DNA of 64,000 nt from assembly GCA_034440615.1 (NCBI GenBank), contig JAOTOM010004960.1, forward strand, positions 397,501 through 461,500, read 5' to 3'. The notes below the pieces were generated by a model, which saw only the letters and a program-made list of their open reading frames with translations, did not search any database and was not told the origin of the DNA. Of this stretch, positions 26,101 to 35,100 are shown piece after piece (position 1 is the stretch's first letter; each line of letters begins with the position of its first letter). The stretch is from Ashinkailepas kermadecensis. Its lineage: Eukaryota; Arthropoda; Thecostraca; Neolepadidae. The position numbers were made by a program, and so were the translations under genes.

Positions 26101-29100
26101 GGAAGGAATTCCCAGGAAATGAAAGAAGGCCCTTAAGATGGGAGTGGTAGGTAGCAGGTATGGAAGGAGGCGAGGTTTCCAAATTGAAGATCCCTCAAGA
26201 CGGGTAAGCTTTGCGAGGACAAAGGAGGTCCACGAGGCGTGGCAGGAGGACCCTTATTTAGCAGAGGATGCCCCTGGAACATGAGAGGAAGCCCCATGCC
26301 ATGTTAAAGGGGCCGTAGGATGTGGGAGGAGGCCCTCCAAAACGGGAGAGGATGACCATTGAGGATAACCATTTAATATGGAGGAGGGTAGGATGCACAA
26401 CAAGACGTCCAAAACCGATAAAAAAGGCTCCAGGAAATGAGGCGAGACCCCTAAGACGCGAGAGGAGGTCTATAGGTTGCAAGAAGCCCCTGAAATGCCA
26501 GGAATCGTGCCGGGGTACTTGAAAATCACAATATGGGCCCAACAAGATCCGGCCGGGGCCCCTGAAAATCACGCTGAGCCTCGGGGTACCAAAAATTCAC
26601 GCCCGGACCATGAAAATCACGCTAGGGGCACGATAGGTCGTACCGTTCCCCAACAATATCATTGGGACACAAATGAAGCCGGGCAACGAAAAACAATCCG
26701 GACACGGATAATCACTCTGGGGCCCCAACAACAACACCAAAAGCATCAAAAACGTATTGGACACCCACAAAGTGTCTAGGTCGCTAAAACTCGAGTTAGG
26801 GATCCAAGCAAGTGACGTCGGGACATAAAAGATTACATTGGACGAGAAAAAAGGCGCGTCGCAGCCCTTGAAAATCTTACTGGAGACCAAAAGGATCGCG
26901 CCTGGACCCAAAAGGTTACCGCTGCCCCAAAAATCAATTATCAACCGGAATGCCACTCTGCGCCACAAAAAAGAAGCGGTCAAAGTCCCCCCCAAAACCC
27001 GTTGGGCACTGGAAAAAACGTGTCAGGGCACTGAAAAAAAATCGCACCTGGAGACCGAAGAATCGTACCGGGACCAAAACATATCACATAAGGACCTTTA
27101 AAAAATAATTTGTTCTTTTTAAAGGTCTTTAAAGAACAGGTCCGGAAAAAATTGCCCGGAGAGCATTTATGGTTCGAAAGGTGCCATCGGCTGAGAAAAA
27201 TCTTTTGGTGACCGCAGTGACATATCAAATGGGAAAATGCCCCCTCCCTCCTAAGAGGGATATGCTCCCAAGAATCGAGCCGAGGCCCCCAAAAATCGCG
27301 CTGGGGCCACACAAATTCGCGTCGGTCCACCAGAATTCGCGTAGAGAACCCTAGAAAATACGCCGGGCCCCAGAAAACTCGCTCCGAGGCACAAAAATCT
27401 GCAACAGGAACCCCCAAGATCGCGTTGGGGTCACAGCTAAGTGCAATGTGCCCCGCAAACTCGAACCGGTCCCACCAAATTTCGCGCTCGGACCCACAAT
27501 TCCCATAAAACATTGTGTTATAATACGTATAAATTGTTGCGTAAAATGTCGTGCGGGTTTTTAAAGCCATGTGTCCCCCTTGGAACCCGATCCAAGCTGT
27601 TAAAAACGGTAGCTCATGCTCTATCACCTTAGTAGTAGTTGTATTCATTGACGGTACATTTTGTATTTGCTGCTGGCATGACCTACTTCACGGCGCAAGT
27701 CGGAGTCCCAGTAACCAAGAATCTGGCCTCGGAACACTTTGCCGCATCCCTCTTCGCTTCTCGGTTGTCTGTGTGATTATGTCACACTGCCCGCAAGTGC
27801 CCAGCTGCTCACGAGATTCGGGTCACCCGATGCCGCACTCCGGTACGGTGGTCACAATTGAAGTCGGCATCTTCACAGCAGCCAGTGCATGGCATGCAAG
27901 TGACATCAAGCATAAATATCGCAGCAATATCTGCGCTTCCAACACTGGCATAGGAAGGGACACGTAATGATCTGGTAGAAATGGACTACTTTCTGGAAAT
28001 CGGACAACGTAAACCATGAGCACGCCCCCGAAATTTATGCACCACCGACGCAAACAACCCGATGCTGCAGGTGCATAGTTAATCCTTGCGTCGGATGCAG
28101 CTGTGTCAGGCGTGGACACCGATGCACCTCCTGCCGATTCGGCGACCAGTGCCCAACCTGGAGGAGTCATGAAGAATCCACTTCAAACGGTGACCTTTCG
28201 GAGGAGATAGCGAAGTTAAAGGCGAATGTGCGAGTTCTCCCAAAAATCCCGAAAGGAGCACGAATCGCAGTGGCGGGGAGCTCGCCAGGCTAATCAATGC
28301 CGCCGTCAGCGACCGCACAAGAACAGCTTGGCGCGACCTCATGGTGTTTGCTTTCTCAGCGCTACAGATCGGGGAGCGGCCGAAAGAGAGCACTTGGGTC
28401 TCCTTGGCTACACAAGTCCGCCGGAACCTAGCCACAGGCACTAGTGGACAGTTCAACGCAACGACGAGCGCTGCTAACCATCAAGGCAAGCGCCCGGGCC
28501 GCCGCCGACGCGTCGAAGATGAGATGACAGCAATGTCACGGCGCGTCTCCTCGAAACTGGCCGACGGCGATGTCAGAGGTGCACTAAGGATACTGACATC
28601 CGACGACACGCTCGCGCCTCCAACCGACGAAGTGGTGGAGAGACTCAGAAGCAAACACCCAGATGCACCTGCGGACCTGCAAGAAATTCATCCTCCCGAG
28701 GAAAGAGTGCCCCCACTAGTTGCCACTGAGGCAGACGTGGAACGAGCCATAAATTCCTTCCCACCGAGCTCTTCTGCAGGACTGGACGGCATCCGACCTG
28801 GCCATCTAAGATCACTGCTAGGCAAGCACACTGCGGAGGCTGGAGCACGCCTCCTCACGGCGCTGACGGCCCTCACCAACCTGGCGCTCAAGGGATGCAT
28901 CCCTAACTGTGCTGTGAACGCCTTCTTTGGCGCCTCCCTGATCGCACCGAAAAAGAAGGATGGTGGTGTTCGCCCAATCGCGGTGGGAAGCGTGTTTCGT
29001 AGGACCGCTGCCAAAGTGGCTGCAGCCAGTGCCTCGGCCCACATCGGCCCTGAACTACGACCGGCACAACTGGGGGTGGCGACGAGGAGCGGCTGCGAGG

Positions 29101-32100: not shown

Positions 32101-35100
32101 TCATCATCATTGCCATCACTTATCATAATCAACATCGTCGTCATAACCATCATTCCACACTGCATGATTTTCTGGAATGTTCATTTCTTGCCTGTGTTTC
32201 ATTTCTTGCCTCCTACACGTCTACTGAATAAATTCCCATCGGTAGTACCACAATTTGGTCTGGGCATCAAAAATTAATGTCGGGGCTGTCAACAATTGGC
32301 GTCTAGGGCCGCACATAGGCACCGTGTGACCCCCAAAGTCGCATCGGTATCCGAAAAATAAAGCCGGACCCCTCCGAAATAAGGAGGGATTCCAAAAAAG
32401 CCGGAGACAGGACAATGGTTCTGGAGCACCGAACATGTCATCAGATGCCTTGACAAATCGCGTAAGGCATCGAAAAACATACCGGAGCTCGACGAAAATC
32501 GTGGTGAGATACAAAAACATGGCGCCAGGGACTAGAAAAATCAGGCCGAGATTCGGAATTTAAAGAAAATTCGGAAGAGATCCACAAAAATCGTGTTGAG
32601 CCTAGGTAACTGGCGTTGGGTCCCGGAACCACGCGTTTGGGCGCGATAAGTCGTGCTAGGACCCAGAAAAATCGCACCGAAGCCCCGAAATCGTACCGGG
32701 GCCCCACAAATGTGCGTCAGAAGCCCCAAATAAACACAGCGAGACCCTAAGAGCACAACGGGGACCGAAAATGCGACTGGCCCTCCAAAGCGCAGTCTCG
32801 CAAAAAGCGACAGGACCCGAAAACATGTGTTGTAGCCATAGCTATATATACCGGGAAATATAATAAAAAACATAAAAAAAAACATCGGAAGCTCTCAAGG
32901 CACACAGGGACCACACGACCGCACAATGGCCTGAAAAGAGGCTGGGGCCGCAAAAACCAACATGATCTCGAAACGAACAAAAATACCGGGCACTAAGTAA
33001 ACACATCGAGATCTTTGAAAGCGTCCCGACAACTAAAAAAAAATATTCGGTGCACAAAAAAGCAACAAACCCTAATACGAGCAGCAGTTTCGAAAATTCG
33101 TTGGGTCTCTAACGAAAATGGATTGGAGCCCTAAGACACATCGGTAGACGAAGAAATACGAAACGGGTTCAAAGAAGTACACTCAGGCTGGGCCTCGGTT
33201 CGGTAGCCAACCTGGAAGCATGTTTAATCAAAGACATGAGGTGAATCAAAGCTCAGCGGGTATCCGCATTTCTTCACCATAAAATATGGGAAGTAGGGAA
33301 CTAAGGATTTAATTTAATTCATCGAATTTTCGCAGTGAACGCCCATACGAAGTATTTTATGACGTCAGATATGGCGCAAGTCTATCATGTGGCAATAATT
33401 AGCACAGCGTATGAGGCCCAGCAGAATCCGTTGCATCGCACGAAGTGTGGCGAATGCGCCGAATGCGCAAGATGGGTGTGCACATGCACTAACGTTGGAG
33501 TCATGGCGACCGGGCACTATGAACTGGAATGTCTGAAATTGGGAAATTTTATATTTTAAAGTGATTTGCGTAGGTGTAATTTCAGCAGTGCGAGGTGATT
33601 TATCAAGGGATACCAAAATAATAAATTCGAACAGGGTGGGGGAGCTAGGGTTGAAATCCGACGAATCAGAAACGATAGTGATAGATTAGGCCCCTCCTCA
33701 GGATAATTCAGTTGATCACTTATTAGTTTATTTAAAAAGGTCCCCTTTTACAAAATAGTGGTCCAAATCGGAAGACTTTATTGAGTAGTTGAACCCCTCC
33801 AAATACTTTTGCCCCTCTCCTTGACGCAAATATAGGTGCGTTACGGGGAGCGAATGATCAACTCTGGTCGAAGCGTCCTAAAGCCCAACTAACTAACTAG
33901 CTAGGCGCGTCACTGGTCCCCCAATAACTTTGAGAAACTTACGCCCATGGACCAAAGTCAACATTTCGGGGGAAATTCCCCCTCACAAGTATACAAAACA
34001 ACACTGATGCCTCATATTAAATGGGAGAAACGATGTTTCAAAATGTATTTTCTCCCTACAAAGTTGTCTTCTGTTATTACAGCCTGTATGATTAGAGTTT
34101 CCCAGCTCCAGTACCTTCTCAACGACACAATTTACAAAACGGTACAGCACAGCGATAACCATGGTGGTGAAGGTGTGGAATTCGAAGGTTTTGCATTATT
34201 TATGCATTGTCATTGTTACATTGTTGCATTGCCATTGATGCATTGTTGTTCAATGCTTGTTCTTACCGTGCATTTATTCGCGGAGGATTTATTATTTTAG
34301 CTTCTGTGCCAAGTGCCTTGCAGCCAGCACCAAATGTAATAAAAAAGAAATAAATCCCTAAGTTGACGATTATAAAACCAATTCAATTCACTTCTCGTTG
34401 TAGCATTCGCGAAATTGTAGTCCGAGGACTGAGAAATGATCGTTTAAGCTTGTTTATGAGATCCAGCTGGTGGGAATTACTAACAGTAGTGATGAACACA
34501 TTCAGTTAAACTTGGTGGACATAGAAGTGGGTTGATCAATGGGAGATATCTTTCAGATATGCTCAGCACGAGCCCCACCAGCTCGATACAATCTAGAGGC
34601 CAGTGGGAAGCTTCTTCTCGTGGATACGGCATAAATATATTGGTTTGTTTTGGCACTGACGTATTTATCCACATTTGCTTATTTATACCCTGATATGGCT
34701 TAGTTCTCAGCGAAAAAAAATTGATTCTTGCTATTGCATTTTGCGTAAATGATGCACCATGCCAAGAACAAACAAGACATCAATATGAAATCATGTTCCC
34801 ATTCGGGAACCATGCTAACAAACTAAAAAGCAATAGGAGGCCCTAACACAGGACCTCCTGGAACAGTGTAATTTGCTAAATATTTCCCAGAATAGAACAG
34901 GTGCCAAAGAAAAAGCAGTGCTAAAGAAATGTCTTGGACGTTGCTTTATGGAATTATACAAATGAAACGAAAACTGAAGACAGAATCTAGTTCATATAAT
35001 TCATAAAGATAACTTGTAAAAAAAAATATACCTTGCCATAGAGGATGTCATTGTTGATGGTATATGGCAACACAGAAAGGTATGATGTGCTTGAATGAAT

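What the first reader, a model, noticed from the sequence alone, without database searches (positions are those of the whole stretch)
27507..32230. Retroelement that carries a USP deubiquitinase domain behind its reverse transcriptase
The insert is bounded by a 9-bp duplication and by an empty-site copy of its host repeat (1-4390), so RT and USP moved as one unit. The order is Cys-rich finger, RT (YLDD), zinc knuckle, PD...D nuclease-like block, then a USP35/38-like domain with Cys (NTCYMNA), His (GHYYC) and Asp (WKLDDE) boxes and two CxxC pairs. Ulp1-type cysteine proteases are known in NeSL-type non-LTR elements and OTU proteases in some other transposons. I know of no described non-LTR element with a USP-fold deubiquitinase. 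A captured deubiquitinase could protect the RT, or the target-site complex, from ubiquitin-dependent removal. Seen: domain order, motifs, boundaries. Inferred: function and novelty.
Basis: partly seen in the sequence, partly recalled or inferred. Interest (0 to 1): 0.93.

Follow-up and report, generated by a model that had tools for sequence, protein, structure and literature searches.

The report
Jumping gene carrying a stolen deubiquitinase
This is a young jumping gene (a LINE-type retrotransposon) that carries, fused behind its copying enzyme, a host-like enzyme domain predicted to remove the ubiquitin tag that marks proteins for destruction; its relatives carry at least four different kinds of this domain, likely taken repeatedly from host genes and kept because it would shield the element's own machinery.

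Summary
Confirmed and widened. The insert at 27507-32230 is one copy of a young non-LTR retrotransposon with a restriction-like endonuclease (RLE). Ten long copies lie in the genome; six keep one open frame (1,356-1,367 codons) that reads finger-RT-RLE-USP. The window copy is 5'-truncated and broken. RT and USP travel together, with clear 9-11 bp target duplications at five sites. The USP is USP35/38-type and keeps its Cys/His/Asp boxes and zinc cysteines.

It is not a one-off. Twenty-one public proteins, including two that NCBI names 'USP2' and 'USP38' in the barnacle Amphibalanus amphitrite, are RT/RLE-USP fusions. Their USPs fall among four cellular families (USP35/38, USP2, USP8, USP37) that are shuffled on the RT tree (at least 10 changes among 20 elements). 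A sister family in the same genome has a USP2 remnant followed by a USP35 segment that starts at a predicted host splice acceptor and lacks a host intron, so it came through spliced mRNA. Its catalytic USP is constrained like the RT (dN/dS 0.24 against 0.32); passengers are higher (0.59) but the contrast is only suggestive.

Cis-protection of the RT complex from ubiquitin-dependent removal is the likeliest role, but it is inferred. I found no earlier report of a USP in a non-LTR element.

The parts
27498..27506 (.). 5' target-site duplication AATTCCCAT
   Evidence: sequence
27507..32230 (+). 5'-truncated, broken copy of the RT-RLE-USP non-LTR retrotransposon
28016..28160 (+). region corresponding to the start codon and Cys-rich N-terminal finger of intact copies (approximate)
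   Evidence: position mapped from L010/P0002
28341..31013 (+). 890-aa open frame: RT and restriction-like endonuclease, closed by TAG at 31011-31013; the six uninterrupted copies read through this position
28950..29645 (+). reverse transcriptase domain (RVT_1), YLDD at 29418-29429
30357..30407 (+). zinc knuckle CxC-x9-H-x3-C
   Evidence: invariant columns in 30-row alignment
30531..30737 (+). restriction-like endonuclease block RPD-x15-D ... ET
   Evidence: invariant columns; motif scan
31107..32038 (+). USP (UCH, PF00443) deubiquitinase domain of USP35/38 type; Cys codon 31134-31136, His codon 31907-31909, Asp box 31958-31963; frame broken near 31.7 kb in this copy
32082..32230 (+). 3' untranslated end ending GTCTACTGAATA, shared by other copies including 3'-only fragments
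32231..32239 (.). 3' target-site duplication AATTCCCAT
1428..2046 (+). empty-site copy of the host repeat

Best explanation
A young RLE-type non-LTR retrotransposon encodes a finger, reverse transcriptase, restriction-like endonuclease and USP35/38-type domain in one frame, and the USP, likely taken from a host mRNA, is predicted to be an active deubiquitinase that would strip ubiquitin from the fused RT-endonuclease or its target-site complex and so protect retrotransposition. Shown: the fusion, its multi-copy mobility, the intact catalytic boxes, four USP types interleaved on the RT tree, the intron-less host USP35 segment in a sister family, and constraint on that family's catalytic USP. 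Inferred: enzyme activity, substrate, cis-protection, and that recurrent exchange reflects selection for deubiquitinase activity in general and not for one substrate.
For: Mobility: 16 copies of 179 bases or more, 10 of them long; 6 have an uninterrupted frame of 1,356-1,367 codons, pairwise 99.36-99.88% identical; clear target duplications of 9-11 bp at 5 of 16 (L001, L003, L010, L014, L016). Domains; the RT profile hits R2 proteins first (E 1.6e-21). Lineage: PF00443 in 16 of the 120 listed RT-region hits, plus P0004, P0006, P0018 and P0203, P0204. The 22 element USPs examined (window family plus those 21) keep the Cys; the His box is kept in the 16 and the Asp box in the 15 whose frame reaches them. 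USP tree: elements fall with USP35/38, USP2, USP8 and USP37. RT tree of 20 elements: at least 10 type changes; AU tests reject one RT clade for each type (p 2e-34, 5e-36, 2e-20, 5e-82). Element USP35s as one clade without the barnacle gene: rejected, p 0.003. Sister family: USP2 remnant then USP35 to the host-like C terminus; two host exons match at 88% and 92% DNA identity, joined with the intron gone, and the host part begins at a predicted splice acceptor in 16 of 16 loci that hold the junction. Constraint: catalytic USP35 0.24 (95% 0.12-0.46, 307 codons), RT-RLE 0.32 (0.20-0.48, 884), passengers 0.59 (0.30-1.32, 217). Ubiquitin-based restriction of LINEs elsewhere: TRIM41-ORF2p (PMC10716122, abstract), UBR2-ORF1p (PMC5570191, passages).
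Against: No activity or substrate was tested. The window copy is dead. Within the window family the copies are too young to show constraint (pN/pS 1.04 for RT-RLE, 0.54 for USP, 39 differences, plus one in the linker), so the constraint result comes from the sister family and from one pair of subfamilies, one member of which (C3120) has a broken frame. Catalytic against passenger counts differ only at Fisher p 0.063, and two low-complexity linkers also have low ratios (0.38 and 0.34). Six of the 22 element frames end or leave the USP before the His box; P0018 appears to change frame there. Most relatives come from unnamed short contigs whose assembly I could not check; the fusion itself is secured by the window genome and the named barnacle records. 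A related RT clade of 31 rows shows no USP (contig ends not excluded), so a USP is not required for this kind of RT.
Confidence: 0.6

Rival explanations
1. The USP acts in trans on chromatin or repair factors at the insertion site (for example ubiquitinated histones or PCNA), easing second-strand synthesis, and not on the element's own protein.
For: Fusion to an RT-endonuclease would place it at the nicked target; several relatives carry N-terminal PHD fingers that suggest chromatin contact; the Ginger authors proposed repair-pathway roles for OTU/Ulp1 (PMC2836005, passages).
Against: Four USP families, which act on different cellular substrates (recalled), serve the same slot; this fits general deubiquitination near the fused protein at least as well.
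Confidence: 0.25
2. The USP is a passenger: element RNAs often pick up host 3' exons, and the USP has no function.
For: Capture through host mRNA is shown in the sister family, and other tails also occur behind the RLE. Two linkers have dN/dS as low as the RT.
Against: Among the 12 RT proteins of this lineage scanned with positions, the only significant domain behind the RLE is a USP; catalytic residues are kept in every element frame that reaches them; dN/dS 0.24 with upper bound 0.46.
Confidence: 0.1
3. The USP diversity comes from a few old captures followed by exchange of 3' modules between elements, not from frequent new captures of host genes.
For: P0082 and P0103, on distant RT clades, share nearly identical tails; USP37-type domains of P0105 and P0123 are sisters although their RTs are far apart; a single origin of the USP2-type domains is not rejected (p 0.55).
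Against: USP35-type domains are not one clade apart from the barnacle gene (p 0.003; five rows have an unusual letter make-up), and four USP families need at least four captures in any case.
Confidence: 0.35
4. The unit is a host USP35 gene joined to an RT fragment by chance or by domestication.
For: NCBI annotates similar barnacle proteins as USP2 and USP38.
Against: Multiple insertions with different flanks, 5' truncations, shared 3' end and target duplications; a separate host USP35 gene with introns at C2072.
Confidence: 0.01

Closest known systems
NeSL and Utopia RLE-type non-LTR retrotransposons with Ulp1-like protease (PMC4640811, passages read)
   Same: RLE-type non-LTR element encoding one protein with zinc fingers, RT, RLE and a ubiquitin-like-protein protease
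   Different: Ulp1 fold, N-terminal; here a USP fold, C-terminal behind the RLE, and exchanged among USP families
Ginger1 and Helitron/Helentron transposons with OTU, Ulp1 or VTD domains (PMC2836005, PMC9741609, passages read)
   Same: Mobile element with a fused deubiquitinase-type domain; different DUB classes can fill the role
   Different: DNA transposons; OTU, Ulp1 or VTD folds, not USP
Trichomonas vaginalis transposase_11 protein with Peptidase C19 domain (XP_001314237.1, named in PMC2836005)
   Same: C19 is the USP peptidase family (recalled), fused to a transposase
   Different: a single DNA-transposase protein in a protist; no reverse transcriptase
Retrotransposons with captured DNMTs (PMC5890265, abstract and section list read)
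   Same: Recurrent acquisition of a host regulatory enzyme by retrotransposons
   Different: DNA methyltransferases; two lineages, not one lineage exchanging paralogues
Non-LTR elements with captured viral SF1 helicase (PMC6338049, passages read)
   Same: Extra enzyme domain taken up by non-LTR retrotransposons of arthropods
   Different: RNA helicase of viral origin; no deubiquitinase in the passages
R2 retrotransposon proteins (PDB 9nl3, 9dou)
   Same: closest solved relatives of the RT profile
   Different: R2 targets 28S rDNA (recalled); the present family shows no shared target sequence among the flanks seen

Membership tests
Non-LTR (LINE-type) retrotransposon | RT domain, no LTRs, 5'-truncated copies with common 3' end and variable target duplications | tested here: met
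RLE-type non-LTR group (R2/CRE/NeSL/HERO) | Zinc knuckle plus PD-(D/E)XK-like block behind the RT | tested here: met
   invariant CxC-H-C and RPD...D columns in 30 sequences; RT profile hits R2 first; by sequence motif only
CRE clade | RT groups with SLACS/CRE | tested here: inconclusive
   one barnacle relative is named SLACS protein by its source (P0135); no CRE reference was available for a tree
R2 clade | RT nests with R2 and insertion in 28S rDNA | tested here: inconclusive
   insertion sites have different flanks, so no single target seen; RT not placed on a tree with R2 references
NeSL/Utopia | Ulp1-like protease at the N terminus (nematode members) | tested here: not met
   protease is USP-fold (PF00443) and C-terminal
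USP (C19) deubiquitinase, USP35/38 type | Cys, His and Asp boxes, four zinc cysteines, closest to USP35/38 | tested here: met
USP (C19) deubiquitinase | Ubiquitin cleavage | not testable with these tools

The most novel reading that the evidence does not exclude
A lineage of LINE-type retrotransposons has a replaceable deubiquitinase slot: elements splice into host USP genes, retrotranspose the chimeric mRNA, and keep whichever USP (USP2, USP8, USP35/38, USP37) shields their RT complex from ubiquitin-dependent restriction, swapping it again and again like an interchangeable counter-defence part.
Probability: 0.45. Interest if true: 0.93.

Novelty: new variant of a known kind. Interest (0 to 1): 0.88.

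Why it matters
It would show that a LINE lineage carries its own answer to ubiquitin-based restriction, which has been studied from the host side in mammals (TRIM41, UBR2), and that the part is exchanged among paralogous host enzymes. The sister family records one capture nearly base by base: a predicted host splice acceptor, the exact exon join and a host-like C terminus. That gives a rare direct view of how LINEs take up host domains. It also warns annotators: barnacle proteins named USP2 and USP38 include retroelement proteins.

Tried and rejected
Host-gene or chance-join explanation: rejected by independent copies and by a separate intron-bearing host USP35 gene. Selection test within the window family: no answer, copies too similar. 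Single capture of all USPs: rejected. Single capture of USP2: not rejected. Rows dropped: P0095 and P0113 (unclear or very short USPs) from the 20-row RT tree; P0095 and P0119 from the USP tree, so the USP8 label of P0119 rests on 65 residues. The sister family was in the 78-row RT tree but not in the 20-row one. Pfam for other tails (DPELARYL type, DFEIPWGELFG type): no significant hit in those scanned. Host identification: not reached; host USP35 N-terminal exons are 38-56% identical to A. amphitrite, so the host is not that species and is not firmly placed. Catalytic exons of the host USP35 were not obtained. Fold comparison was impossible (structure prediction off). My notes speak of serial capture USP2 then USP35; that order is an inference.
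Full report
The window lies in an unnamed 908-Mb genome (C4463). The insert 27507-32230 is bounded by AATTCCCAT on both sides, and a second copy of the host repeat at 1428-2046 lacks it, with the two flank matches 27 bp apart. Pfam finds RVT_1 in the 890-aa frame and UCH in the two following pieces.

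Copies. A DNA search of the genome gave 16 matches of 179 bases or more at 90-100% identity (L001-L016), 7 of them beginning at query position 1 or 2, and three short 3' fragments (L017-L019). Fourteen of the 16 reach the last base of the query; L007 and L009 stop at 4693, behind the USP. Six copies (L002-L007) extend about 320 bp further 5' than the window copy, and others are truncated at various points, as expected of target-primed reverse transcription. Flanks differ; clear target duplications are 9 bp (L001), 10 bp (L003) and 11 bp (L010, L014, L016); in the other 11 they are uncertain or were not found. Six copies hold an uninterrupted frame of 1,356 or 1,367 codons that runs from the finger to the end of the USP. 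The window copy is dead: 5' truncation, a stop at 31011 and a frame change near 31.7 kb. The six intact frames are 99.36-99.88% identical, so the family is young.

Anatomy. In the intact protein (P0002, 1,355 aa): Cys-rich N terminus, RVT_1 313-544 with YLDD at 469, knuckle CxC-x9-H-x3-C at 782-798, RPD-x15-D at 840-858, USP at 1032-1341. In a 30-row RT-RLE alignment the knuckle and the RPD...D block are invariant. The RT profile finds R2 retrotransposon proteins first among solved structures (E 1.6e-21), then L1 ORF2 (E 2e-11). The USP finds human USP35 first (E 7e-48). Catalytic Cys, His and Asp and the four zinc cysteines are invariant in a 20-row alignment of element and cellular USP35/38 proteins.

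Relatives. Searching the USP part gave three fusions, P0004, P0006 and P0018 (re-examined). Searching the RT-RLE part gave 370 hits (only the 7,990 best candidates were scored), of which 120 are listed; 16 of those 120 carry PF00443. Two more (P0203, P0204) came with the USP2 query. The ones with an organism name are from the barnacle Amphibalanus amphitrite, annotated as 'ubiquitin carboxyl-terminal hydrolase 2' (P0092) and '38' (P0099); a third barnacle relative is named a SLACS protein (P0135). My own USP profile rang in 22 of 126 proteins, three of which are copies of the window family. In the 78-row RT tree a clade of 31 rows carries no USP: its frames end within 60 aa of the aligned RLE; contig ends are not excluded.

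Four USP types. In a tree of 42 USP domains the element domains group with USP35/38 (window family, P0004, P0006, P0018, P0089, P0090, P0098, P0099, P0117), USP2 (P0086, P0092, P0093, P0203, P0204), USP8 (P0125, P0133, P0144) or USP37 (P0105, P0123); P0113 is on a long branch and unplaced. A PDB search of P0144 agrees (USP8 first, E 3e-68); P0123 is weak (USP21 first, E 1e-13), so the USP37 label rests on the tree and pairwise scores. The P0092 domain is 87% identical to the barnacle's annotated USP2, P0202. On a 20-row RT tree the types need at least 10 changes, with sister pairs that differ (for example P0099 USP35 and P0125 USP8; P0203 USP2 and P0117 USP35), and the AU test rejects each type as one RT clade. 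Element USP35 domains as one clade apart from the barnacle gene are rejected (p 0.003), with the caveat that five rows have an unusual letter make-up; a single USP2 origin is not rejected (p 0.55). At least five captures follow if the USP35 result is taken at face value, and at least four in any case. Exchange of 3' modules between elements also occurs: P0082 and P0103, on distant RT clades, share a nearly identical tail of another kind.

How capture happened in one case. A sister family in the same genome (16 loci: L032-L037, L039-L044, L046, L048-L050; longest frames 1,985-2,031 aa; RT-RLE 44-50% identical to the window family) has, behind the RLE, about 81 residues of USP2 (64-70% identical to the barnacle's, 16 of 16 loci) and then USP35. 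In the copy at C2933 the USP35 part runs to a host-like C terminus, GCGG...NFVC. The 40 scored candidates of a USP35 search all carry such a stretch (a lower bound). A host USP35 gene lies at C2072 with introns. Two of its exons match the element at 88% (177 bp) and 92% (106 bp) DNA identity; the GT...AG intron of about 900 bp between them is absent from the element. The element's host-derived part begins at a predicted host splice acceptor (cag before GACGGTGACGAGG) in 16 of 16 loci that hold the junction. Element and host intron share the last three bases before that point, so the boundary is ambiguous by three bases; the acceptor is predicted from sequence, and the preceding host residues (224-250 in barnacle numbering) lie in another exon about 1.4 kb upstream. 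So this USP35 part came from a spliced host transcript; a chimeric transcript spliced into the host exon is the simplest reading, but the donor side is not resolved.

Constraint. Between two subfamilies of the sister family (C829 and C3120, the latter with a broken frame): RT-RLE dN/dS 0.32 (0.20-0.48; 884 codons), USP35 catalytic parts 0.24 (0.12-0.46; 307 codons), passengers (USP2 remnant and HEAT part) 0.59 (0.30-1.32; 217 codons). Means over four copies for the smaller parts: C-terminal tail 0.80, USP35 middle linker 0.59, Gly linker 0.38, linker before the USP 0.34, N terminus with PHD 0.12. Catalytic against passenger counts: Fisher p 0.063. An earlier cut on 14 copies gave the same order. 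The catalytic USP is therefore kept about as strictly as the RT; the contrast with passengers is suggestive only. The 22 element USPs retain the Cys; the His box is retained in 16 and the Asp box in 15, the other frames ending or leaving the USP before them (P0018 and the Cys of P0113 and P0123 judged by eye).

Function. Fusion to the RT places a deubiquitinase on the element's own protein. Human and mouse L1 proteins are restricted by ubiquitin ligases (PMC10716122, abstract; PMC5570191, passages). Helitron-type VTD domains are deubiquitinases for which protection of transposition proteins was proposed (PMC9741609, passages). That four USP families fill one slot suggests that deubiquitination near the RT is what is selected. 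This is inference; action on chromatin or repair factors is the main rival.

Novelty. Searches for a USP or deubiquitinase in retroelements showed none among the papers listed. Two of these were seen only in part (20 of 3,032 papers, 12 of 61), by title and start of abstract. The library is open-licence PubMed Central; most subscription papers and Repbase entries were not searched. Nearest in print are Ulp1 in NeSL/Utopia (PMC4640811), OTU/Ulp1 in Ginger and a Trichomonas transposase with a C19 domain (PMC2836005), and VTD in Helitrons (PMC9741609).

Noticed in passing
window 40940-42301 (+): A second reverse transcriptase frame (RVT_1 E 5e-35); its family was not examined.
   Followed up: no
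window 1-4390 and about 25.7-34.3 kb: Two copies of a long host repeat, about 90% identical, one of which holds the insert.
   Followed up: partly
G000, 72 matched stretches: The USP2 protein matches many stretches (some at the same place, and not all need be USP2); at C3120, C4551 and C3744 they lie directly behind RT matches of this lineage, so USP2 has been spread by retroelements. The count is a lower bound.
   Followed up: partly
P0082, P0084, P0085, P0087, P0096, P0103, P0111, P0135, P0143, P0149 and P0100, P0120, P0130, P0145: Relatives without a USP carry other C-terminal tails with recurring motifs (DPELARYL-like; DFEIPWGELFGARP-like, both kinds in P0149); those scanned have no significant Pfam match there.
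   Followed up: partly
P0172 residues 13-80: One relative has a nuclear-receptor-type C4 finger (PF00105, E 4e-15) where others have PHD fingers, so the N-terminal slot may also be exchanged.
   Followed up: no
P0092, P0099 (Amphibalanus amphitrite): NCBI names for these barnacle proteins (USP2, USP38) describe retroelement proteins with RT domains.
   Followed up: yes
L018, L019: Fragments of only about the last 75 bases of the element with a shared extra AACTGAGG behind the usual end.
   Followed up: no
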